From NCBI GenBank assembly GCA_902728285.1, contig CACVBU010000616.1, positions 291,681 to 355,680 of the forward strand: a stretch of DNA of 64,000 nucleotides, written 5' to 3'. The position numbers and the translations under genes are program-made. Position 1 is the stretch's first letter; each line of letters opens with the position of its first letter. The notes beneath the pieces are model-generated. The model ran no database searches. It saw only the letters and a program-made list of their open reading frames with translations, and was not told the DNA's origin. The DNA is from Clytia hemisphaerica. Lineage: Eukaryota; Cnidaria; Hydrozoa; Leptothecata; Clytiidae. Below, piece after piece: positions 3,827 to 33,395 of this stretch.

Positions 3827-4238
3827 GCCATAATATTCTCCTCAATTCATGAAAATAATGACGTAATGTTTTTTACGAAAATACCCCGGTTTTTGCCAGT
3901 AGTAGCATTAAACATTGCATCATAAATATCATGAATGGGGTGAGTCTAAATTTAAATAGCGCACCGCGCTGAATCTAAAAATAGATTTTATTTTTGACAT
4001 AATCATTACCTTCGATGTGTTTGTACGAGTTCCAATCCCATCAACCTTTGCGCTAATCTCTTTTGCACGTTAATTGCATCGTTTGACAAAAGATATATAA
4101 CAGCTTGCACGTATCTTTAATTGAGCCGCGTTGAATTGTGGGATTGCAACTCGAACAAATGTCAAAAAAAAGTGAAAAGTAATAATTATGACGTATGCAT
4201 TGCGGAGCGCTATTGCATGACCAAAAAGTATGCTTATA

Positions 4239-4489
4239 CAGGGTGTCCCTAATTAAAGTATCGAGTCGAAACACAACTATGAGTAGAAAGTTTTATGTGC
4301 GTGTTCACAAAATTGTATTTTAAGCTCTCCCTCTTTTTTCTTTGTCATTACGATTAATTTATACGTTGTAACTACCTTTTGTAATAAGCCTGTGTGATGG
4401 AGAACGTTCTTATATTTTAGCGATAACACACACAAACTTTTCTACTCAATCGCATGTTCAAACTCGATACTTTAATTAGGGACACCCTG
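4239..4489. mobile_element. CAGGGTGTCCC-type MITE, copy in second duplicate
   Basis: Begins CAGGGTGTCCCTAATTAAAG and ends CTTTAATTAGGGACACCCTG, flanked by TA (4237-4238 and 4490-4491). Terminal inverted repeats exceed 25 bp. The first duplicate has the same flanks uninterrupted near 2013. Confidence 0.8.
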
Positions 4490-5040
4490 TAAACGAGAAT
4501 TAAAAAGAAATGAAAAAACGCCTCTAGACCTCGGAGTGTGGCTTTTGTAAAACTCTGTTACGGCATGGAGGTTACGGTGATCTCTCTCTATCGTGAGGGA
4601 AATTATTTTCTCCATTTTTTGACTAGTTTTAACCATCGAGCGTATGCGAGCCAGTATGTCATTGTGAATGTTTTCTCTGTTTTTAAACTGGTAGTAGAAA
4701 ATTCCATTATACGTTGGTCGCTTGGCTTTCTACTGTGAATGAAAAAGCATTTGGAAAACTTTACAATCTAAAAATGTTCCCTTCTATTTCTTTGTCATCT
4801 TTTGTTTCCGGTATACTTTTTCGAACTCTTCAAAAACAAATATACTTTTTGATTCGCTTTTAAACATTACAAATATTAATTAAGAATAACATTTTCCTTT
4901 GATGCTTTCTTGGAAAAATATTTCATGAAAAATTTCTACAATTTCTACATTATTTTCTGTGCTATTTTCCTTTTCCCCTTTATATAAAATCTGTATTTAT
5001 CCGCACCATTGTAAATTAGTTTTGAAAAAGATATGTTTAT

Positions 5041-5633
5041 CAGTCAAGGACACCTTCAAATTAGCCTATCATAGGCTGATTAGCCTATCATAGGCTATTT
5101 AGACTATTTTATATAGGCTATTTAGCCGAAAATCGATAAAAACCTCGATTTCTGACGAAATATAAATAGTCGCGTCTATTTTTCACCATTACTTCATTGC
5201 CCAAAGCCAAAAGAATCTTTTTCACTTAAACTGATATAACATTCAATTTTGGAAACAGAAATATGAATAAATTTACTATCCATCGGCTAACTAACCGATT
5301 ATAGGCTAATTTTCTGATAATGAAGTGCCGTGTACAAAAACACATGTTTGTTAAAAAAAAATTTTTTTTCAAAAAGCCCGATTTTCTTACCCTGCAGTAC
5401 CAAAAAGTGGAATATTTCCTAAACCAAAATTGACCCAAAGTCAAAATTTGTCATGAACATTTCTCTGACAATGAGAAACCATGTATTCCTTAGAGAAGAC
5501 GCGACTATTTATATTTCGTCAGAAATCGAGGTTTTTATCGATTTTCGGCTAAATAGCCTATATAAAATAGTCTAAATAGCCTATGATAGGCTAATCAGCC
5601 TATGATAGGCTAATTTGAAGTTGTCCTTGACTG
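5041..5633. mobile_element. 593-bp inverted-repeat element, 5-bp TTTAT duplication, empty site in other copy
   Basis: The outer about 135 bp at each end are inverted copies: left CAGTCAAGGACACCTTCAAA, right ending AAGTTGTCCTTGACTG. TTTAT flanks both ends (5036-5040, 5634-5638). The first duplicate has one TTTAT at this point (about 2565). The ends contain a repeated sub-motif TAGCCTATCATAGGCT, itself palindromic. No transposase is present. Superfamily not assigned. Confidence 0.85.
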
Positions 5634-6641: not shown

Positions 6642-7436
6642 ATGACTCCTCAAAATCGCACTAAATTTCATTCGAAAATGCTCTTAAACACTGAGATGAC
6701 TTGTCAAAATCACACTAAATTTCAGTGAACTCTTCAATGAGATGACGTCGAAAATGCTCTTACACACTGAGATGACTCATCAAAATCAACTAAATTTCAT
6801 CGAAATACTCTAAACAAGATGACTCCTCAAAACCCACTAAATTTATGAAATTCTCTTAAACATGATAGACTCCTCAAATCACACTAAATTTCAGTCGAAA
6901 ATGCTCTTAAACCTGAATGACTCCCAAATCACACGAAATTCAGTCGAAAATCTCTTAAACACAGAGATGATCCAAAATCCCACTAAATTCAGTGAAAAAT
7001 TCTCTTAAACAATGGTGACTCTCAAATCAACTAAATTTCAGTCGAAAATGCTCTTAAACACTTAATGACTCTCAAAATCACACTAAAGTTCAGTCGAAAT
7101 GCTCTTAACAACAGAGATGAAGCCGCAAATCCCTAAATTTCAGTGAAAAATTCTCTTAAACAATGAGATGACTCCTCAAAACCGCACTAAATTTTATTCG
7201 AAAATTCTCTTAAACACTGAGATGACTCCTCAAAATCACACTAAATTTCAGTCGAAAATGCTCTTAAACACTGAGATGACTCCTCAAAATCACACTAAAT
7301 TTCAGTCGAAAATGCTCTTAAACACAGAGATGACTCCTCAAAATCGCACTAAATTTCAGTCGAAAATGCTCTTAAACACTGAGATGACTTCTCAAAATCA
7401 CACTAAATATCAGTGAGAAATGCTCTTAGAAATGAG
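6642..7436. repeat. Tandem array, about 15 units of 54 bp
   Basis: The unit begins GAGATGACTCCTCAAAATCR and runs through TTTCAGTCGAAAATGCTC to TTAAACACT. The last five units (7168-7416) are nearly perfect. Since 54 is a multiple of three they stay open as an 18-residue repeat beginning MTPQNHTKFQSK. The first ten units (6642-7165) have many one- to four-base deletions that destroy the frame. I regard it as a satellite rather than a gene. The sharp quality change could be decay or uncorrected long-read errors. Confidence 0.85.
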
Positions 7437-17123: not shown

Positions 17124-20100
17124 TCATTTTTGTTCATTGTTTTTGTTAGCCAAGGCCATCTGTTGCAATTGCTTCTGAATCATATCCAAACTAGTTGTGT
17201 TTGAAATTTCAACAAATAGTGGTTTCTGTGCTTTGATTTCTTTGAAAATTTTCTTAGCTAAGAAATGAGTGACCGAGAAATGAGTTAACATCTCTTTCAA
17301 AGGTTCCAGCCCAGGCCTCCACTGCTGACCGAGCGAGAAATAGCGTTCGCAAGAAGGTGCCGCACAAGACGCGCCGTTTTGGTATTCAATCAGTTTTGGC
17401 ACAAAATCATTTTGAAAACTGTAAATCAACGTTTCCTCGCTACGGTTCAATAGACGGGGTGCCGATAACGCATTATCTGCTACGTAAACGCGCGCTTGGC
17501 ATAAACGCGTAGCGCAAATGTCTCCATTAGGTTTTACAATGATGACAACACCGCGTTGTATGTTCTTTAAGATAGCCTGTGTATTTAGGTCATCTGAATC
17601 TGGAAAATAGATCTGTTCTGCATCCAAGGGACCAAAGATATTGGATAATATATTTTTGGCATCGGGCTCTTGAACCATATCAGTGGGAACAACCGGAGGA
17701 GGCTCGTGTGATATCCGCATCCCGTTCATGTTATTAACAATCTTGCATTCGACCTCTTTGTCAGAGAAATACAATTTGACACCAACAGCTGAGTAAAGAG
17801 AAAAAAAAGAAAAATAGTTAACAAATCTCGAAGTCGACCAAACAAAGTTATTTCTGATGTGGGGTATTTTTAGTTATAAGCATGGGTATGGTCCCTCACT
17901 TTTTTCCAGATTAAATTTTTTAAGGTCAATAGCCTTTTTTTATCCAATCAAATAACGTTTCGTGATGTTTGGAATGGGCTCTTCCAGAAAAAATTTGAAT
18001 ATGGGGTGGAGAATAAAACATCTTTGGGAAATTTACGTCCGGGGGACATTGTGAATTTTGACCCCCGGACAACGGATCTCACCCCCAGACAAGCATCAGT
18101 TGACCCCCGGACATTCAATATCACGCCTAATTAGAAGAAGTTTGCCCGTAAAACAAGGCAAATTTTGCAGATTTTTCACTACCCCCGGACAAAATATCCA
18201 ATATATCCTCTATGTACAAAAATTTTCTGGAAGAGCCCAATAAACGATAAGAACATGAATGTTTACCAGTGACAGGTATGTTACTGTTAGCAGCGATATA
18301 TGTAGAGATAGCACTACTCATCTGTGACAATTGTTCCATGTTATTGCTTTGTTGATGCTGATGTGTTTGTTGTTGTGCTTGCTGTTGCTCGCGAAGAAAT
18401 TCCTATATAGCGGAGCGAGAAAAAATTCATAACGATTCTTGATATGCGACACTTAGATGCGTTGAAAAGTTTGAAAAAATAGCAGAATTTCGTCAATATC
18501 TCATCAGTCATTATAATGGTGCATAACCAACATACACGATCCCTACATATCATTTAACACTAAAATATCATGAGAGAAAGGACCCTAGCAGGCAACCACA
18601 TTCGCTTATAGGGATAATCAGTTTTGGCATTTGACTATTTCAGTAAATTTTAATGTAAGTACACGTTAGAAGAACTACCTTTATTACACCTATATTACAA
18701 GGCAAGTATTCAACGGCCTTGAAATTAACACGCAAAGAATTACCAAGAATTTTATTTGCTTTTTCAAGGACACTACGGCTGGTTTTAATTTAAGGGTCTT
18801 TTTATTAACACGAGATTTTTCAATTCGTGTTAATAAAATGACTAGTAATATTTGTGTAATGAGGTATATAAAAAAAAGTCGAATTAGGAATCTTAGCAGG
18901 ATATATAGCCGTCAATAAAACACAGGCTCTAAAAAAAAAAGTAGTTGCACTCTTTTTGAGCCTCACATACCAAGAGTTAATTGAATTAATTGGGCACCTC
19001 CTCCCTATTTCGGAAAATTTCGAAAAACTCTAGGCCCTTCAGCAAAAAGACGGAAGGGATTAACAGTCTATGGACCAAATATAACTATATTTTGATCCGT
19101 ATTTTTAAAAGGAAAAGCTGAAAGTAATTGATTTTACTCACATCAACGATACTGTCGATCTTGTCGTCATCAAAAGCTGGTGGCATGTAATCTGAAAAAA
19201 AGAATGTTTCGAAATTAAAGGCGATTCAATTCGTTGTAAAAATTATCCCTGATAGCTGGTCATATATATCTCTTGAGAATAAGGAGCGATGGCCAAGTGG
19301 TCAAAGGCGTCAGCGTCTTAAACCAGGGATTTGCGGTTCGAATCCCCACTTCTTCCAATGTTCTGTTCAGTTCATAGATGGCCGAGCCGGCTGGCCATGG
19401 ACCCCGTGAAAACAATCAAAAGATTGCCTAAAAGTCCTAGATTACTGGAGTATACGCATAAAATATCGATTATATCTATCAATCTTGAGAATTGCCATTT
19501 ACTTTGGTTGGAAAGTGAAGCAAAAATTAGATACCAAACTTCACTTTTTCCTTTTTGGTTTTTGATTTTTCTGCAAAGACTGATCTTTTATTTGACACGT
19601 ACAAGAGTCTTGACAATACTGTATATTTCTAACATACCATTACACAAGGTAGCTGCTTGATGATGTTGAGGTGTCAATTGAGGTGGTTGGTTTTGCGGTG
19701 GAGGAACATACATTCCACCAGTAGTTTGTTGTTGTTGTTGTGTATGGCGCATTTCTCCCATACCACCTTGCATTTGCTGGAAATCCAAGGAAAGATAGAT
19801 TAAGAATACGAACAGGGTACAACCCAACTGAAAGTAAACTGTTGTGTAATTTCAATAGTTATGGCTGACAAGTGACATTCTTTTTTTAATTGTTTAGCAA
19901 TTTCAAAACATTCGATTCAAAACGGTACATTGTCTTTTGAGGGCCAGTTTAAATTTAGAAAGGAGGAGGAAGCTGTGATGTGCGCAAAAACTGACGCATT
20001 TGTGTCCTTTGTTTTCGGTGACTAAACCAAAATTGAACCAGCTTACTTGGCGCACTTTTTTTGGTGATTGATAATAATTTGGTTTTGATTGTGATTTTAC

Positions 20101-25041: not shown

Positions 25042-26158
25042 GATAGGCAATTGAACAAGTGGATAGCATTCTACTAGACTTCAGTAAGGCTTTCGACAAA
25101 GTCAGTCATCGTAAACTGATCATTCAACTAAAACATTATTATGGAATCAACGGCGACATCTTGTCCTGGATTAGGGACTTCTTATCAAACCGTACTCAGT
25201 GTGTTGTTGTACGTGGGAAATCATCAAAATCCTCACGTGCGTCATTTCTGGAGTACCTCAGGGTACAGTCCTTGGACCGTTGCTTTTCTTAATTTACATA
25301 AACGATTTGCCCGACGAAGTTAAATAAAAAATAGCTCTATTGCAGATGATGCATACCTTTATCGTTCATTACTCTCGATTGAAGAGGCTTTTCAACTTCA
25401 AAAGGACTTAAACAATCTTGTCTCCTGGGAGACAAATTGGTCAATGCAATTCCATCCTGATAAATGTCTAGTCTTGAGAGTAACCAACAAGAGAAATATC
25501 ATTGACTCAGAATATAATATTCATGGTCAAACACTAAAAACTGTTGAGAAAGCAAAGTACCTTGGTATCACCATCTCAAAGAACCTAACATGGAATAACC
25601 ACATAAACTGCATTACATCAAAGGCAACCAACACGAGAATGTTTTTACAACGAAATTTGTCATGGACTGACATAAACACGGGACTAACATGCTATAAAAT
25701 ATTCATAAGACCATTGGTGGAATACGCAAGTACGGTATGGGATCCAGTAGATAATCAATCTTTAATTCACCAAATTGAAATGAAAATCAATACGCTGGAT
25801 AGCCAATGAGTGGAGTTATGAAGTCAGCCCAGAATCCCTCAGAAAGCCTTTGGACCTTGAAACCCTTGAAGGTTGGAGATACAAATCAAAAATTAAGATG
25901 CTACACGATATTACATCCGGTAAAAGGTTTGTTGACTTAAAAATCCACCCAAAGAGGCAACGCTGTTGTAATGTGAAATTCCAACCGATTCAAGGGAGAG
26001 TTAAGTGCTATTCATCATCTTTCTTTCCCTCCACCGTACAGTACTGGAATAAACTGCCATCAAATGTTGCAAACCTTGTTGATGAAAACGAATTTAAAAA
26101 AGAAATAGATGAAAATTTAACTTTAGGAATTTCAACTCTTACAAAATCACTAAGATAG
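25042..26158 (+). mobile_element. Second LINE fragment, reverse transcriptase with frameshifts
   Basis: ILLDFSKAFDKVSHRKL is the RT palm motif carrying the first catalytic Asp; [14 protein letters not shown]-type sequence follows in another frame after a shift near 25240; a second break adds a stop near 25324; then ADDAYLY and LGITISKNLTWNNHIN. The C terminus at 25850-26158 ends at KSLR. There is no endonuclease domain and no 5' end. Only limited similarity to the 23356 element, so a different family. Confidence 0.8.
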
Positions 26159-26600
26159 ATAAAACTTACACTAAACTACTTACTCAAATCCTTTTGCTAG
26201 TTTTTGAATAAATTCTCACACTTTTCCACACTAATCTACTATGCAAGCTAATCAACTCAAATCTGTCTGCTTAAAATTTAAGATTTCGACATTAAGATCA
26301 TTTTATATTATAGCTTATTTATATTTACATACACGTACATACAACCGTACATCATGTGCCCAAGTTCAGGAGTTGCCATAAAGCCCTTTGGTAATAACCA
26401 GGAGGGCACATTGCTATACATTGTATATTTACATACATTTATTTATTTATATTAGATTTTAAATAAACAAACTTTTATACATAACTAACTTATATTTCAA
26501 TCTATGTATTGCTGACAGCACATTTAAAAATTTTTCATTTTTGTAATTTTTACGTAGAATTTGCGAGATTAGGCTTAATTGTCTTATGCAAATACATAAC
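26159..26600 (+). repeat. AT-rich probable 3' UTR of the second LINE
   Basis: Follows the RT stop. Contains GTAATAACCAGGAGGGCACA and TTACATACATTTATTTATTT. No poly-A tail or clear boundary was found. Confidence 0.4.
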
Positions 26601-27608
26601 TAGAACTAGAACTAACTAGAACTAGAATTCGATCTGCCTAGCCAGGGTGCAGTATGCAGTGCTGACAAGTCCTAATAAGGACGAATCGTCAACTGCTCTA
26701 ACTATCTAACAAACAATGGGACGGCAATTCGGCCACCATTTCACCGAACCAAGTAGGCTTTTAAATCGAACGGAAATGGGCCATTCCAGAAAATTTTTGT
26801 ATACCCCGTCGGACGACGTGCATTTTTAATTTTTTCTAGCCTCGGAAATAATTTTCTTTTCCAGTGGTGGGTCGGAAATTCTGATGAAAATCTATGTACT
26901 TTTGCTAAATGCATCGGAAATTCCACTCTATTTAGCCTTTTTTAATTCAATTGCCTTGGAAATTCATACATTTTCTTCTCTCACCTTGGAAATTTTGAAT
27001 TTTGCTGAAAAACTTTGCCCTCGGAAATACGACGGGTATAAAATGCATAAAACCGCGAAATCCTCTTTATAGAAGAGTTTCTTTGTAAACATTCCAATCA
27101 GAGGGATTTCCCCAGACATGAAATTTACTTTTCGAATCCGAACGAAAGAGAAAACATTCGAATCATAACAACAAAAGGTTTTCCTTAGCATAAATAATAA
27201 GAAGATGCAACAGATCAGAAAGGTTTTCCCTCTTCTTCTTTCTCAAAAAAAGGTAAACACATAAACATTTGACTGTAAAAAGATTCAAAGTCTATTTTCT
27301 TTGGTCTAGCTTTCGCATAAAGCTCTTTAATTTATATTGCTGGATATTGGCTTCTGTCCGCTTCACATGGTTAATTCTTTTTTAAGAGGGAAAACCCGTT
27401 GAAATTTATTAGTAATTGTTCGAAAAGATCTCTGAGAAAACCTAGAATGAAGATCTTGCTATAAAATTTACGTTGTGGATTAGAAAAGTAAAATACGGAG
27501 GAGATATTTTCGTGTTTTTTTTACTCTAAACTACGTTCTGTAAAATACAACTATGAAAATCATAATGGCGACAAGCATTTTTAGTCGATCATGGATTTTC
27601 GTCATCAT

Positions 27609-30600
27609 TAGGGTAGGGCGTCAACAGTCATTTTTGGGGCAAAGTCAGAAAATTCAAGATGTAGTGTTTTTTTATGAAAATTTAACCTATTGTGAGGCAT
27701 TCTGCGCAATTTTTAAGGTCAGAAGTTCAAAATTGGCCGAACCCCCCTGGGGGTACTGATTCGCACTACAGGCAAAAATTGGAAAAATTGGCATTTTCTG
27801 GCCTTTTCAGGCCTGAAAATATGTCAAAACTATTGCAAATCCTATTTTTTTCACTTGCTGTACTAAATTTTATGAAGAAACAACAAAATAATCATATTGG
27901 ATTGAAAATTGTGCCTATTAGAGCCCTAAAAGAGCCGTTTTAAGCCAATTTTGGGTAGCAAAATGCTTTTTAAGGCCAATTTTGCAAGCTCATAAACTTT
28001 AAACTGATCGATTCATATGCCTGAAATTTTCAGAGATGGAAGTCTTCAATAAAGTCTTTAAGCAAAATGAATTTCAAGTTTTTCACTTTTTTCAAAAAAT
28101 CATAATGGCGTCTTCAAAAATCGCTTTTTAGCAAAAAAAATCATATTTCTCAAAAAATAGCATTTTTAAGGCAAGCTTCTACAAACTGAGTTTAAATGCT
28201 GACTGAAATTTTTTTTGCAGTGATAGTATACTGGAGATACTCCAGGGAAATCAAAATCATTTGCGTCTGGGATGGGTCTACCCTTACCAAAATATTGACT
28301 AGAAAAGTATACTTTCAGTATATAGAAAGTATACTGCATTCATACTTTTGCTCAAATTTAAAGATTAAAGTATACTCTAAGTATACTTACCAAAATCAAA
28401 GCATCACTCAAATTAACAAAATGTGTACTGCATTTATACTGCAATAAGAAAGTATGAGAAAAGTATACTGTTTTTATACTTTACTGTACTTGTTTTTCAA
28501 AATGAGATAAAAATAAAAATAGCTAGGTGTATTAGATCAAAAAGTATACTTTAAGTATACTGCCCTTGGAGTGGGAAAGTTCTTATTTGTTTTGAAATCA
28601 TTTTTCCTTTGTTAATTTTCATGCATGAAAGGTTTTTTTAAAAAGAAGTGAATCTCATAAAAACTTTGAAACACATGAAAAAATTCTCTCATACATCAGA
28701 ACATTAAATGAGTGTGGTGTTGTGAGAGAAATTTGTTTTTGACAATTTTTTGAACAGTTGAAAGTTTTTAAACATTTATAAATTTGAAGATGAAGGGTTT
28801 GCTTTAACGATAAGTAAAGTTCAATGGATGGTGTGCAGTGACCTTGCTAATGTAAGTATAAAGATTACCTGTATATTATTCAAAACTAATGGTGCACTAT
28901 ATGAATGTAATGAATCTTGTTTGTGATTATACTAGTGAGTCTGTGACAGCATGATGAGTTAGGTAGTTTAAGTTAAACCTGGTGTGAGTGCGGATACAGA
29001 TTTTCTTTATCTGCTAAAGAGTTTTTAAGAATATTTACTTTCAATGTTACTTACAGTTACTTTACTGTTACTTTCAATGTATCAGATTAATGAAGTTTAG
29101 TTTTAAAATTTCTTGAAATTCATAAGCCTTATAGGCATGAACTTTTCAAATTTCATTGAAAATGTGTTTTGAATGGCCATGTGGTTAATAATAGCAACTT
29201 CTATGAAAGTATACTTTATTTATACTTTTTTGCAGTATATATGAAGTACACTTCCATGCAGTATACTTAAAGTATATGGAATATTGTTCCAAAAATTTAG
29301 TACTTAAAGTATACTTCCTAAAACATCAAAATATATACTGAAAGTATACTTTTAGTACTTCTGAAAGTATACTTGCAGTACAGAATAACATATACTTAAA
29401 GTATACTGAGTTTTGATAAGGGTATGTCTGCCATTATGGAAATAAAATCCCAGCTAATAGCCATTTTTCAGGCCAAAAACCCAAATTTGGACTGAAAAAA
29501 TCTCTAAAATGTCAATAGACATGGGTCCAAATTTTCTTGCAGTGATAGTATTCTGGAAATACTACAGGAAAATCAAAGTCATCTGGGCTTGGGATTTGGG
29601 TGTATCCACCATTTTGGAATTGAAATTCCTGCTAAAACGCAATATTTCAATCAAAAATCCAATTTTTCACTCAAAAAATCTTAAAAATGGCAATAGACAT
29701 GAACCTAAAATCTTTTTGCAGTGATAGTCTTCTGGAAATACTCCAAGGATATCAAAATTGTTTGGGTTTAGGATTTGGGTATATCCACCATTATGGAATT
29801 GAAATATGTGTTAAAACTGGCTAAAATACAATGTTTCAAGCAAAAACCCCGTTTTTGAATAAAAATTGCTCTAAAATGACAATAGACATGGACCCAAATT
29901 TTTTTGCAGTGATAGTCTTCTAGAAATACTCCAGGGAAATCAAAATTGTTTGGGTTCAGGATTTGGGTATATCCGCCATTATGGAATTGAAATATGTGTT
30001 AAAACTGGTTAAATTGCAACATTTCGAGCAAAAATATTATATTGACTTAAAAACTGCTCTAATATGGCAATAGACATGAACCTAAAATCTTTTTGCAGTG
30101 ATAGTGTTCTGTAAATACTCTAGGGGTAAAAACTATTCAGGTATAACATGCTTCTGGGACCGCGATTTTTAAACTGAAGCCAGTTTTAAAATGTATATAA
30201 TATTTCAAGCTAAAATTCAATCTTTTTTTGACGGAACAAGTCTTGAAAATGGAAATGTAAGTGGGCTATAAAGAATTGTTGAGTGAAATGGGATTTTTAC
30301 ATTCTTTGCTTAATGTAATATACACAATATTTAGTCAATTATGATATATTGGATGGAAATATGTAGCATTTTAACAAAGATTTCATTTCCATAAGGGTGG
30401 ATGTAAACAAATCTCAGACTGAAATGATTTTGTTTTTCCAGGAATATTCACAGAATACTATCACTTCAAAAAAATTTGGGTCCATGTCTATTGTTATTTT
30501 AGAGCAATTTTTATTCAAAAACGAGGTTTTTGCTTGAAACGTTGCATTTTAGCCAGTTTTAACACATATTTCAATTCCATAATGGTGGATATACCCAAAT

Positions 30601-31611
30601 CCTAAACCCAAACAATTTTGATTTCCTTGGAGTATTTCCAGAAGACTATCACTGCAAAAAGATTTTAGGTTCATGTCTATTGCCATTTTTAAGATTTTTT
30701 GAGTGAAAAATTGGATTTTTGATTGAAATATTGCGTTTTAGCAGGAATTTCAATTCCAAAATGGTGGATATACCCAAATCCCAAGCCCAGATGACTTTGA
30801 TTTTCCTGTAGTATTTCCAGAATACTATCACTGCAAGAAAATTTGGACCCATGTCTATTGACATTTTAGAGATTTTTTCAGTCCAAATTTGGGTTTTTGG
30901 CCTGAAAAATGACTATTAGCAGGGATTTTATTTCCATAATGGCAGACATAGACCCATCCCAGACGCAAATGATTTTGATTTCCCTGGAGTATCTCCAGTA
31001 TATTATCACTGCAAAAAAAATTTCAGTCAGCATTTAAACTCAGTTTGTAGAAGCTTGCCTTAAAAAATGCTATTTTTTGAGAAGTATGATTTTTTTTTGC
31101 TAAAAAGCGATTTTTGAAGACGCCATTATGATTTTTTGAAAAAAGTGAAAAACTGGAACTTCATTTTGCTTAAAGACTTTATTGAAGACTTCCATCTCTG
31201 AAAATTTCAGGCATGTGAATCGATCAGTTTAAAGTTTATGAGCTTGCAAAATTGGCCTTAAAAAGCATTTTGCTACCCAAAATTGGCTTAAAACGGCTCT
31301 TTTAGGGCTCTAATAGGCACAATTTTCAATCCAATATGATTATTTTGTTGTTTCTTCATAAAATTTAGTACAGCAAGTGAAAAAAATAGAATTTGCAATA
31401 GTTTTGACATATTTACAGGCCTGAAAAGGCCAGAAAATGCCATTTTTTCCAATTTTTGCCTGTAGTGCGAATCAGTACCCCCAGGGGGGTTCGGCCAATT
31501 TTGAACTTCTGACCTTAAAAATTGCGCAGAATGCCTCACAATAGGTTAAATTTTCATAAAAAAACACTACATCTTGAATTTTCTGACTTTGACATTTGAC
31601 GCCCCACCCTA
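27609..31611. mobile_element. 4.0-kb foldback-type element
   Basis: Two long arms are inverted copies: about 27609-30130 and 30420-31611. The tips are TAGGGTAGGGCGTC and GACGCCCCACCCTA, flanked by TCATCAT at 27602-27608 and 31612-31618. Inner arm segments are tandem units of about 180-190 bp, each containing AGACATGRACC...TTTGCAGTGATAG; five lie in the left arm and about four in the right. A unique loop of about 290 bp separates the arms. Identical peptide-like ORFs in both arms are by-products of the inversion. No transposase is recognisable. The structure matches foldback (FB/Galileo-like) transposons. Confidence 0.8.
28281..29422. mobile_element. 1,142-bp TA-flanked element nested in foldback left arm
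   Basis: Absent from the right arm, which supplies an empty site near 30958. Ends CCCTTACCAAAA and TTTTGATAAGGG are inverted repeats, and TA precedes (28279-28280) and follows (29423-29424). Dense copies of AAGTATACTT-like palindromes cluster near both ends (28305-28565 and 29205-29405). The middle is AT-rich and non-coding. Confidence 0.85.
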
Positions 31612-31741
31612 TCATCATCCAAAATTCAAATTTACGGCTTTTTAACCTTTATTTTCTGGTAGAAAATGGTATATTTGTTTTGTTGAAAGTATTATTTTTC
31701 AAATTCTCCTTATTATGGCCTCTAAAATTGAAATTTTTCAA

Positions 31742-31790
31742 ATATTATGCATTATGCATTATGCAATATGCATTATGCTTTATGCATTAT
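31742..31790. repeat. ATTATGC microsatellite
   Basis: Repeats of ATTATGC and variants (ATTATGCATT, AATATGCATT) beside the foldback element. Confidence 0.9.
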
Positions 31791-31872
31791 GTACCCGTCG
31801 CTCGGAAATACTGTGCCGTCCGCCCTGTTACAGACAAATTCTGGAAAGGCCCAATATGAGAAAAATCCGCAG

Positions 31873-32717
31873 ACGACCCTGCCGGTGCACCCGACAGTCG
31901 GGTGCTGTCGGGTGTTTTGTAGGGTGCTGAAATTTCTAAATTTGCGAAAACACCCGAAAATTGTGCACCCAACAGTCGGGTGCTTAAAATTCCTAACTTA
32001 GTGAGAACACCCGACAATCAACACTCGACATCGCCTCTGATGGGCAAAATCGCCACCCGCCCGTTACATGTCGGGTGCTGTTAAGAGCGCCCAAGATATA
32101 GCACCCGACAAAGTGCACCTGACTGTCGGGTGTTAAAATTTGGTTGGCAGACGATATCATCCACCAGGATGCAAGTGAAATTTTTCAATCTACGGACCTA
32201 GACGGGGGTTCGGTTATTATCAGTTAGGGTTAAGGTTGGAGCTCGAGAGTCACAATATAAGGCCGAAGGCCTTCTTAGGGGCATCCGTACCCTGTGACCT
32301 AACTTAGGATCCCGTAGGGATCCTTGTAGGGGCACCAGTAGGGTTGGGAGCTTTCCTAATAAAGGTCTGTAAATTACACACTATAAGTATTTGTGAATGA
32401 CAGCATTCTGCCGTGTCTCGATGGCGCTAGCGGTTAGGCATTGGGTTTGTAAACCAAGGGTGCTTGTATTTGGTGGTTCGAGCCGGGGGTCGGCGACCTA
32501 TTTCAACGGTACGGGCAAATTTCAGAAAAATACTTAGAAAACAGTTAGAAACACTAGAGAAAGTCAGAAAATCAGGATAGAAGATAGGAAAGTAGAAAAT
32601 AGGGGGGAAATAAGAGAGGATGCATCCTGGTGGATGATATCGTTTGCCAACCTTAAAATTTCTAGCTTCGAGCACCCGACAACAGCACCCGACTGTTGGG
32701 TGCACCGGCAGGGTCGT
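31873..32717. mobile_element. 845-bp hAT-like element, 8-bp duplication ATCCGCAG
   Basis: The left end ACGACCCTGCCGGTGCACCC and right end GGGTGCACCGGCAGGGTCGT are inverted; ATCCGCAG occurs at 31865-31872 and 32718-32725. Subterminal arrays of CACCCGACAGTCGGGTG palindromes occupy both ends. A second inverted pair, GGCAGACGATATCATCCACC and TGGATGATATCGTTTGCC, lies inside. An 8-bp duplication suggests hAT; no transposase. Confidence 0.8.
32415..32500 (+). repeat. tRNA-Thr-like sequence inside the hAT-like element
   Basis: GTCTCGATGGCGCTAGCGGT looks like a tRNA 5' end with an A box; TTGGGTTTGTAAACCAAG forms an anticodon arm with TGT; GGTTCGAGCC serves as a B box. The T stem and acceptor do not pair, and there is excess sequence between the arms, so it is a captured or decayed tRNA. 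Confidence 0.5.
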
Positions 32718-33395
32718 ATCCGCAGTGGAATAGAATATCTGGAATGAAGAAGACCAAATTAGTAGCAAAACGATGGAGCATTTGACATCACTCGTGCTTC
32801 AAGTTACACACTTGTTTATAGCACACATTGCCGCGTGCGTAATATCGATAAACAAAAACAAAACACACGGCATTTCCCAAGCCACCATCAAGCTGTCAGA
32901 ACACAGAAGGAAGAGTAGAGGAGAAAAGGCAAAAAAAGCATCAACCCTGGCCTATCTAAACTTGACAAAAAAACATTAAATAAAGTAAGACATGAAAGTG
33001 AAACAGGAAAAAAACAAGTTCAATCAAGCCACCTTGAAAATTTCATGATAAAGCATAAAGGCAGTTTGGGTCTAAAATATTTGCAAAGTCGTGTGAAAAA
33101 TTTAGTTTCATTTTCGATCACCTCCTCATTTGGCCATCTTGGTTTGTTTTGATTGAGAGAAAAACATTTGCCGAGAACCGAGCTTCCCGCTGAAACCCGC
33201 CCTGTGCGCCCACCCGCCAATACATTCTTCGCCAACCTTGGCCTTTTGCTTTATATTTATTTTTATCATGATTTTCTTGATCTCCAAAAATATAAAGGTC
33301 AGTGTTGCCAGTAAACACTCCATTAGAAAAAAGCCTTAGAAGTTTCAAATGCTTTATTTACGTTACTGCACTGATGGACGCCAGAGGAGAGAATA

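What the first reader, a model, noticed from the sequence alone, without database searches (positions are those of the whole stretch)
27609..31611. 4-kb foldback transposon with 7-bp duplication and tandem-unit arms
The arms are about 1.2 to 1.4 kb of homologous inverted sequence, built largely from units of about 185 bp containing TTTGCAGTGATAG, with a 290-bp unique loop and matching TCATCAT flanks. Arms made of sub-repeats are characteristic of foldback elements, which are rarely described outside insects and a few other lineages. The TIR tip TAGGGTAGGGCGTC may define a new family.
Basis: partly seen in the sequence, partly recalled or inferred. Interest (0 to 1): 0.7.

Follow-up and report, generated by a model that had tools for sequence, protein, structure and literature searches.

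The report
Jumping DNA with long mirror-image arms
This is one copy of a family of gene-less "foldback" jumping DNA elements in an animal genome, with long mirror-image arms, probably moved by a borrowed P-element-type enzyme; similar elements in fruit flies are known to invert pieces of chromosomes.

Summary
The foldback is real. Window 27609-31611 is a non-autonomous foldback transposon of about 2.86 kb whose left arm is split by a separate 1,142-bp TA-flanked insert (28281-29422). The 16-base tip occurs 185 times in the 417-Mb host genome (reversed control 0); 55 tip pairs bound elements, 29 of them 2.6-3.0 kb. Of 21 copies examined, 19 have a perfect 7-bp target duplication, and two clean empty sites were seen. 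Targets follow nTAnTAn (Y2 and R6 in 19 of 19), the inner part of the GTANTAC consensus of Galileo, a Drosophila P-superfamily element with long, internally repeated TIRs. P-type transposase hits abound (150 scored); the one P family read also makes 7-bp duplications (2 of 2). Arms are partly homogenised within elements, and the loop has flipped between them at least twice. No copy with its own transposase was found: the two longest carry a gene that belongs to another, nested transposon. Best reading: a Galileo-like foldback family, probably mobilised in trans by a P-type transposase, in what is probably a non-insect animal. The foldback is near certain; the mobiliser is inferred (0.62). New family of a known kind.

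The parts
27602..27608 (.). left copy of the 7-bp target site duplication TCATCAT
   Evidence: identical 7-mer at 31612-31618; 19 of 21 copies examined have a perfect 7-bp duplication
27609..27639 (+). left terminal segment, tip TAGGGTAGGGCGTCAACA
   Evidence: left-type tip pattern: 85 exact hits in the genome, reversed control 0
27640..28206 (+). left arm, outer part without units
   Evidence: inverted repeat I2: 27640-28140 is 99% complementary to 31091-31591
28207..28280 (+). left arm, first unit, cut by the nested insert
   Evidence: unit core at 28217; I7 pairs with the right arm at 99%
28281..29422 (.). nested 1,142-bp insert, not part of the foldback (TA at 28279-28280 and 29423-29424)
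   Evidence: 29 other near-full-length matches listed; ends CCCTTACC..GATAAGGG; right arm shows the uninterrupted site
29423..30125 (+). left arm, inner part: unit cores at 29539, 29718, 29906, 30095
   Evidence: I1 94% complementary over 582 bp; TRF period 188; cores
30126..30366 (+). loop (middle segment) without units; same orientation relative to the left tip as in 15 of 22 copies
30367..31591 (-). right arm: unit cores at 30458, 30646, 30825, 31003, then the outer part
   Evidence: I1, I2, I7; 96.3% to the left arm over 1,225 columns with the insert skipped
31592..31611 (-). right terminal segment, tip TAGGGTGGGGCGTCAAATGTCA read inward
   Evidence: right-type tip pattern: 88 exact hits in the genome, control 0
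31612..31618 (.). right copy of the target site duplication TCATCAT

Best explanation
The feature is one copy of a non-autonomous cut-and-paste DNA transposon family with foldback anatomy. Shown: dispersed copies with identical tips, a 7-bp duplication at a palindromic nTAnTAn target, unit-built arms, no coding capacity in the copies checked, arms partly homogenised within an element, and a loop found in both orientations with at least two changes. Inferred: a P-superfamily transposase encoded elsewhere in the genome binds the tips and perhaps the repeated units (as shown for Galileo's THAP domain), pairs the ends, cuts the element out and inserts it with a 7-bp stagger; recombination or gene conversion between the inverted arms keeps them alike and inverts the core.
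For: Family and ends. Perfect 7-bp duplication in 19 of 21 copies. Targets: Y2 and R6 in 19 of 19 (fraction 0.25 in the rest of the window); 51 of 76 matches to nTAnTAn against a random mean of 24.5, reached in 0 of 20,000 draws. Uninterrupted related sites, two clean and one with a gap at the junction. Galileo makes 7-bp TSDs of consensus GTAGTAC / GTANTAC / GTATTAC (passages of PMC2775673, and PMC4168063), has TIRs with about 210-bp tandem repeats of varying number (passages of PMC3573991) and transposase-binding sites in its TIR repeats (abstract and passages of PMC3688188). P-type transposase domains here: 150 hits. One P family here makes 7-bp duplications in 2 of 2 copies. Arms: 0 fixed left/right differences in 616 columns and 14 private substitutions present in both arms of one element. 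Loop orientation 15 to 7 in 22 copies; 18 to 15 plus one element with both, by position; at least 2 changes on the core tree.
Against: No P-type gene was found between these tips: the nearest of 150 P-type hits lies 34.8 kb from one of 118 tip positions. The one P family read begins CATAGTC, unlike TAGGGT, and only one of its two targets (ATGACAT, not GGGAAAC) fits Y2/R6. Galileo's G at position 1 and C at position 7 are not seen. L014 has 7-mers with 3 mismatches and L026 a defective duplication. Of 136 private substitutions 122 are in one arm only, so homogenisation is not continuous. Copies read were picked as the best matches to the window copy, which favours young, intact ones.
Confidence: 0.62

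Rival explanations
1. A foldback of the Mutator/MULE superfamily, to which most foldbacks are assigned (FB/NOF, Tm1, Tetris), moved by a MULE transposase.
For: A passage of PMC4079207 says that most foldbacks seem to belong to Mutator. No transposase of this family was found that would exclude it, and MULE genes in this genome were not searched.
Against: 19 of 21 duplications are exactly 7 bp and none longer; Tetris has 8-10 bp, FB 9 bp (recalled). The target resembles Galileo's.
Confidence: 0.13
2. Another superfamily with a 7-bp duplication, such as Dada (6-7 bp) or one not yet described, mobilises the family.
For: Dada makes 6- or 7-bp duplications (passage of PMC8869645). TAGGGT tips are not those of the one P family read here.
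Against: Many Dada families enter multicopy RNA genes; no tRNA gene was found in 20 fetched loci or in window 26000-33000, and no Rfam family reaches threshold in the window. Targets resemble Galileo's.
Confidence: 0.16
3. The gene in the two longest tip pairs (L029, L030) is the family's own transposase, so these are the autonomous foldbacks.
For: The two longest of 55 tip pairs, 8,801 and 6,767 bp, carry the same two-exon gene between the arms in the same orientation. The protein has DDE-like conserved motifs (my reading) and a sub-threshold PHD match.
Against: The gene unit has its own end..CGTAATAGGCCC, exact in five places with five different flanks, three of which are not the foldback loop; in L029 a matching left end is present. 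L041, read for 1.5 kb to the left and 3.1 kb to the right of the unit, has no foldback arm. The right junctions in L029 and L030 lie about 10 bp apart in the loop, and the arms (about 89%) are far more diverged than the gene (98.8%).
Confidence: 0.08
4. An assembly or chimeric-read artefact made a false palindrome.
For: Palindromes can arise from chimeric reads in principle.
Against: Different flanks with 7-bp duplications, a non-inverted loop, arms that differ by about 0.5-4% in copies without large indels, and uninterrupted related sites.
Confidence: 0.01

Closest known systems
Galileo (Drosophila; P superfamily)
   Same: 7-bp duplication at a palindromic target with a TA.TA core; TIRs up to 1.2 kb with tandem units of about 210 bp whose number varies between arms; gene-less two-TIR copies with a short middle segment; TIRs of a copy alike; middle segments in either orientation (passages)
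   Different: Tips are TAGGGTRGGGCGTC; no G1/C7 in the target; no transposase-bearing copy found; no demonstrated chimeric copy (L014 has non-matching 7-mers, but its arms differ by only 1 substitution plus gaps over 385 columns); host probably not an insect
Foldback elements of the Mutator type (FB/NOF, Tm1, Tetris)
   Same: Long arms with sub-repeats, short middle domain, mostly non-autonomous
   Different: Duplications of 8-10 bp (Tetris passage; FB recalled) against 7 bp here
P element of the same genome (L042/L043)
   Same: 7-bp duplications in 2 of 2 copies
   Different: Short TIR CATAGTCAAAAG.., about 6.2 kb, no blastn similarity to the foldback
Foldbacks of sea urchin (TU elements; name recalled)
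   Same: Foldbacks in a non-insect animal; sea urchin is named in a passage of PMC4079207
   Different: Unit size and duplication recalled to differ; not compared here

Membership tests
Foldback elements (structural class) | Long inverted terminal arms built of sub-repeats | tested here: met
   window arms about 1.2-1.4 kb; 3-5 unit cores per arm in the 21 copies examined, spacing mostly 178-189 bp
Foldback elements (structural class) | Short middle segment, no coding capacity in typical copies | tested here: met
   loop 241 bp in the window copy, about 270-300 bp in most others; longest stop-to-stop frame 102 codons in L009 and 87 in the window copy, the two copies checked
Foldback elements (structural class) | Mobile: dispersed copies with target duplication | tested here: met
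   55 tip pairs; 19 of 21 perfect 7-bp duplications; two clean uninterrupted related sites and one with a gap
P superfamily / Galileo | 7-bp duplication (7-8 bp in the superfamily) | tested here: met
   passages
P superfamily / Galileo | Palindromic target GTANTAC | tested here: inconclusive
   inner TA.TA met (51 of 76 against 24.5); outer G and C not met
P superfamily / Galileo | An element with these ends encodes a P-type transposase | tested here: inconclusive
   none of 150 P-type hits lies within 34 kb of 118 tip positions: the 85 left tips and the 33 unpaired right tips. Only 150 of 247 P-type candidates were scored, and 12 of the 185 tip hits are in neither tip list
P superfamily / Galileo | Terminal 40 bp shared by Galileo families | not testable with these tools
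   the sequences stand in a figure that is not held
P superfamily / Galileo | Transposase (THAP) binding sites in the TIR units | not testable with these tools
   needs binding experiments; shown for Galileo in PMC3688188
Mutator-type foldbacks | 8-10-bp duplication | tested here: not met
   exactly 7 bp in 19 of 21, longer in none
hAT | 8-bp duplication (recalled) | tested here: not met
Dada | 6-7-bp duplication | tested here: met
   passage
Dada | Insertion in multicopy RNA genes (many but not all families) | tested here: not met
   no tRNA gene in 20 loci or window 26000-33000; no Rfam hit in the window; snRNA genes not searched in the other loci

The most novel reading that the evidence does not exclude
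Galileo-type foldbacks (P-superfamily transposition, 7-bp TA.TA-centred target, unit-built TIRs with an invertible core) are not a drosophilid peculiarity but occur, with young copies, in a non-insect animal; either the architecture is ancient in the P superfamily or it has arisen at least twice.
Probability: 0.52. Interest if true: 0.5.

Novelty: new member of a known kind. Interest (0 to 1): 0.35.

Why it matters
In Drosophila buzzatii Galileo made three natural chromosome inversions (passage). If the same architecture serves a P-type transposon in a distant animal, the idea that long repeated TIRs give binding specificity and also promote rearrangement can be tested outside flies. This genome offers dozens of copies with intact ends and two loop orientations.

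Tried and rejected
Autonomous copy inside the long tip pairs: L029 and L030 first looked like autonomous foldbacks, since both carry the same gene between the arms. Comparing boundaries showed a separate nested transposon.

L014 as a chimera made by ectopic recombination, as in Galileo: its flanking 7-mers do not match, but its arms differ by one substitution plus gaps over 385 columns, so the arms give no support. I dropped this on rechecking and lowered the main odds from 0.65 to 0.62 (and the novel case from 0.55 to 0.52), because it removes one parallel with Galileo.

P-type gene near a tip: none within 34 kb. A search with the diverged L029 arm returned only further foldback arms among its 40 scored of 613 candidates.

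Host identification: no name. 417 Mb in 951 contigs. The window holds an IRF-3-domain exon, a Fic-domain exon, alpha-tubulin and a reverse-transcriptase match just below its cut-off. GFP family: no hit, but no control genome rang either. '951 contigs' in papers: three unrelated listings. That insects lack IRF genes is recalled.

Similarity of L009's foldback to the P element, the relatives of the nested transposase, the nested unit, or the rest of the window: no blastn hit at 0.01.

Papers: listings, abstracts and passages only; none read whole. That nothing like a P-type foldback outside drosophilids was seen rests, in one open-licence library. Not searched: MULE genes in this genome, other eukaryote genomes (not held).

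Full report
Observation. The stretch 27609-31611 begins TAGGGTAGGGCGTCAACA and ends TTTGACGCCCCACCCTA, with TCATCAT on each side. Repeat search finds the inverted arms (I1 582 bp at 94%, I2 501 bp at 99%, I7 118 bp at 99%), and TRF a tandem array of period 188 in the left and 178 in the right arm. The motif GCAGTGATAG (one mismatch allowed) marks five units in the left and four in the right arm.

A nested element explains the 4 kb. A search with 28282-29460 scored 40 of 146 candidates; 30 rows, the window copy among them, cover more than 1,130 query bases, 29 of them ending at or near query base 1,141, at 89-98% identity. The insert is 28281-29422, with ends CCCTTACC..GATAAGGG and TA on each side; the right arm has the uninterrupted site GGGTCTATGTCTGCC. 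Skipping it, the arms are 96.3% identical over 1,225 columns.

The family. The exact 16-base tip occurs 103 + 82 times in the genome, its reversed control 0 times. The left-type tip occurs 85 times and the right-type 88 times, control 0 for both. Pairing them within 20 kb gives 55 elements: 29 lie between 2.6 and 3.0 kb, 8 between 1.0 and 1.32 kb, and the longest are 5,522, 6,767 and 8,801 bp; 30 left and 33 right tips stay unpaired. Mutated tips are not counted.

Insertion. I fetched 20 loci, the next best matches to the window's left end after the window itself, so young and intact copies are favoured, and two long copies. Both ends were matched in 18 of the 20 (not in L012 and L019). With the window copy and the two long ones, 21 copies were examined. 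A perfect 7-bp duplication flanks 19; L026 has a defective one and L014 has 7-mers with three mismatches. In the 19, position 2 is a pyrimidine and position 6 a purine every time (fraction 0.25 in the rest of the window); matches to nTAnTAn total 51 of 76 against a random mean of 24.5 (0 of 20,000 draws as high); palindromic pairs are 27 of 57 against 15.1 (16 of 20,000 as high). Joined flanks of 19 copies (L029 and L030 not included) were compared with the fetched DNA. L021 and L010 match a related repeat without a break at the junction and with one copy of the target; L026 matches too, but with a four-base gap at the junction.

How the arms behave. For 16 of 21 copies (L014, L024, L025, L029, L030 dropped for divergence or large indels), 616 columns of the outer arm show 0 fixed left/right differences at an 80% threshold. 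Of 136 private substitutions, 122 are in one arm and 14 in both arms of the element. Of 22 variants shared between elements, in 17 every carrier on the rarer side has it in both its arms. Mean left/right divergence is 2.0% within and 2.9% between elements, left-left 2.3%, right-right 3.4% (16 copies; here L014, L018, L025, L029, L030 were dropped). With all 21, where internal insertions disturb the alignment, the figures are 5.6, 6.2, 5.0 and 7.4%. So the arms are made alike from time to time, not constantly; shared descent of both arms within subfamilies accounts for a part that I did not separate.

The loop lies in the same orientation to the left tip as in the window in 15 of 22 copies and flipped in 7 (21 copies plus L012). 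By position, 40 loop hits (of 74 candidates) set against 61 left tips give 18 elements same, 15 flipped and one, C472, with two loops in opposite orientation; 5 hits had no exact left tip. A tree of 20 cores (L029 and L030 left out) needs two changes of orientation, both forced by well-supported branches.

Who moves it. Neither of the two copies checked has a frame longer than 102 codons. The genome holds 150 scored hits to a P-type RNase-H domain, of 247 candidates. Two copies of one P family share about 6.2 kb, begin CATAGTCAAAAG, and have duplications GGGAAAC and ATGACAT, both 7 bp. Galileo is described with 7-bp duplications of consensus GTAGTAC, GTANTAC and GTATTAC in different samples, TIRs with about 210-bp tandem repeats, transposase-binding sites in them, TIRs over 99% alike within some copies, chimeric copies with non-matching 7-mers, and middle segments in opposite orientation (passages). 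Counterparts here: duplication length, inner target, unit-built TIRs, arms alike within copies, loop in both orientations. Not matched: outer target bases and tip sequence as far as seen. Not shown: binding sites, chimeric copies, a P-type gene between the tips. I therefore say that it works like Galileo and do not file it as Galileo.

A false trail. The two longest pairs carry a two-exon gene (exon ends read by eye: L029:2759-3915 and 4182-5093; L030 on the other strand). The gene regions are 98.8% alike, the arms about 89%. Pfam gives only a sub-threshold PHD match among weak ones. Five near-identical copies of exon 2 are open. The unit ends exactly at ..CGTAATAGGCCC in five places with five flanks, has a matching left end in L029, and carries ten copies of CTGTCGGATGGAC in either orientation with up to two mismatches (mean 0.04 in 200 mononucleotide shuffles). 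It is a separate transposon that is found in two foldback loops with right junctions about 10 bp apart; the left part is missing in L030, so two insertions or one rearranged insertion remain possible, though the unequal divergence favours two.

Host. Not named. The IRF-3-domain exon shows an animal; that insects lack IRFs is recalled.

Judgement. Real and well explained in kind. Shown: anatomy, family, duplication, target, partial homogenisation, both loop orientations. Inferred: P-type mobiliser, units as binding sites, recombination as the cause of the flips. I saw no report of a P-type foldback outside drosophilids, which cover open-licence papers only.

Noticed in passing
L029:1528-6915 and inner part of L030: Separate transposon with ends GGGCMTATTACGAAAT, ten CTGTCGGATGGAC-like repeats and a two-exon gene without a Pfam family above cut-off (weak PHD). 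It lies in two foldback loops with right junctions about 10 bp apart, although the arms are far more diverged than the inserts. The loop holds TATCGGATGG, like its own repeats: a possible target preference.
   Followed up: partly
window 28281-29422: 1,142-bp TA-flanked element rich in AGTATAC, with 29 other near-full-length matches of 89-98% listed. One, C77:133153-134283, also lies inside a foldback tip pair (C77:132392-136191), at a different place.
   Followed up: partly
L029:7858-8522: Another nested palindromic element in the right arm of L029, flanked by TTAA, ends CCCTTTCCGGACGC; the window's right arm shows the uninterrupted site (read by eye).
   Followed up: no
L029:5737-6724: Nested palindromic insert with ends GGTTTGTGTAATTTACGATGCGCGATCC inside the gene-bearing unit; absent from L030 and the other gene copies compared.
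   Followed up: no
L014:1078-4053: Foldback copy with flanking 7-mers ATTCTAG and CTATTAG (three mismatches) although its arms differ by one substitution plus gaps; each 7-mer fits the Y2/R6 rule. Unexplained.
   Followed up: partly
G000:C472:1664176-1668195: A 4,020-bp tip pair with two loops in opposite orientation, perhaps a dimer or recombination product; not read.
   Followed up: no
G000, P-type hits: 150 scored P-type transposase hits, many in long open frames (up to 901 codons); six spaced about 2.8 kb at C870:32974-47261, a tandem array.
   Followed up: partly
G000, eight tip pairs of 1,020-1,309 bp: A short size class of the foldback, perhaps with few or no units; not read.
   Followed up: no
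L039:3-2681: Distant relative of the nested transposase with a match to DUF7869 just below cut-off (E 7e-5, 22.9 against 26 bits): a lead to its superfamily.
   Followed up: no
window 17124-17873: Exon with an IRF-3 domain (E 1.3e-20): an interferon-regulatory-factor-like gene.
   Followed up: partly
window 6747-7428: Tandem array, period 54 bp, about 13 copies.
   Followed up: no
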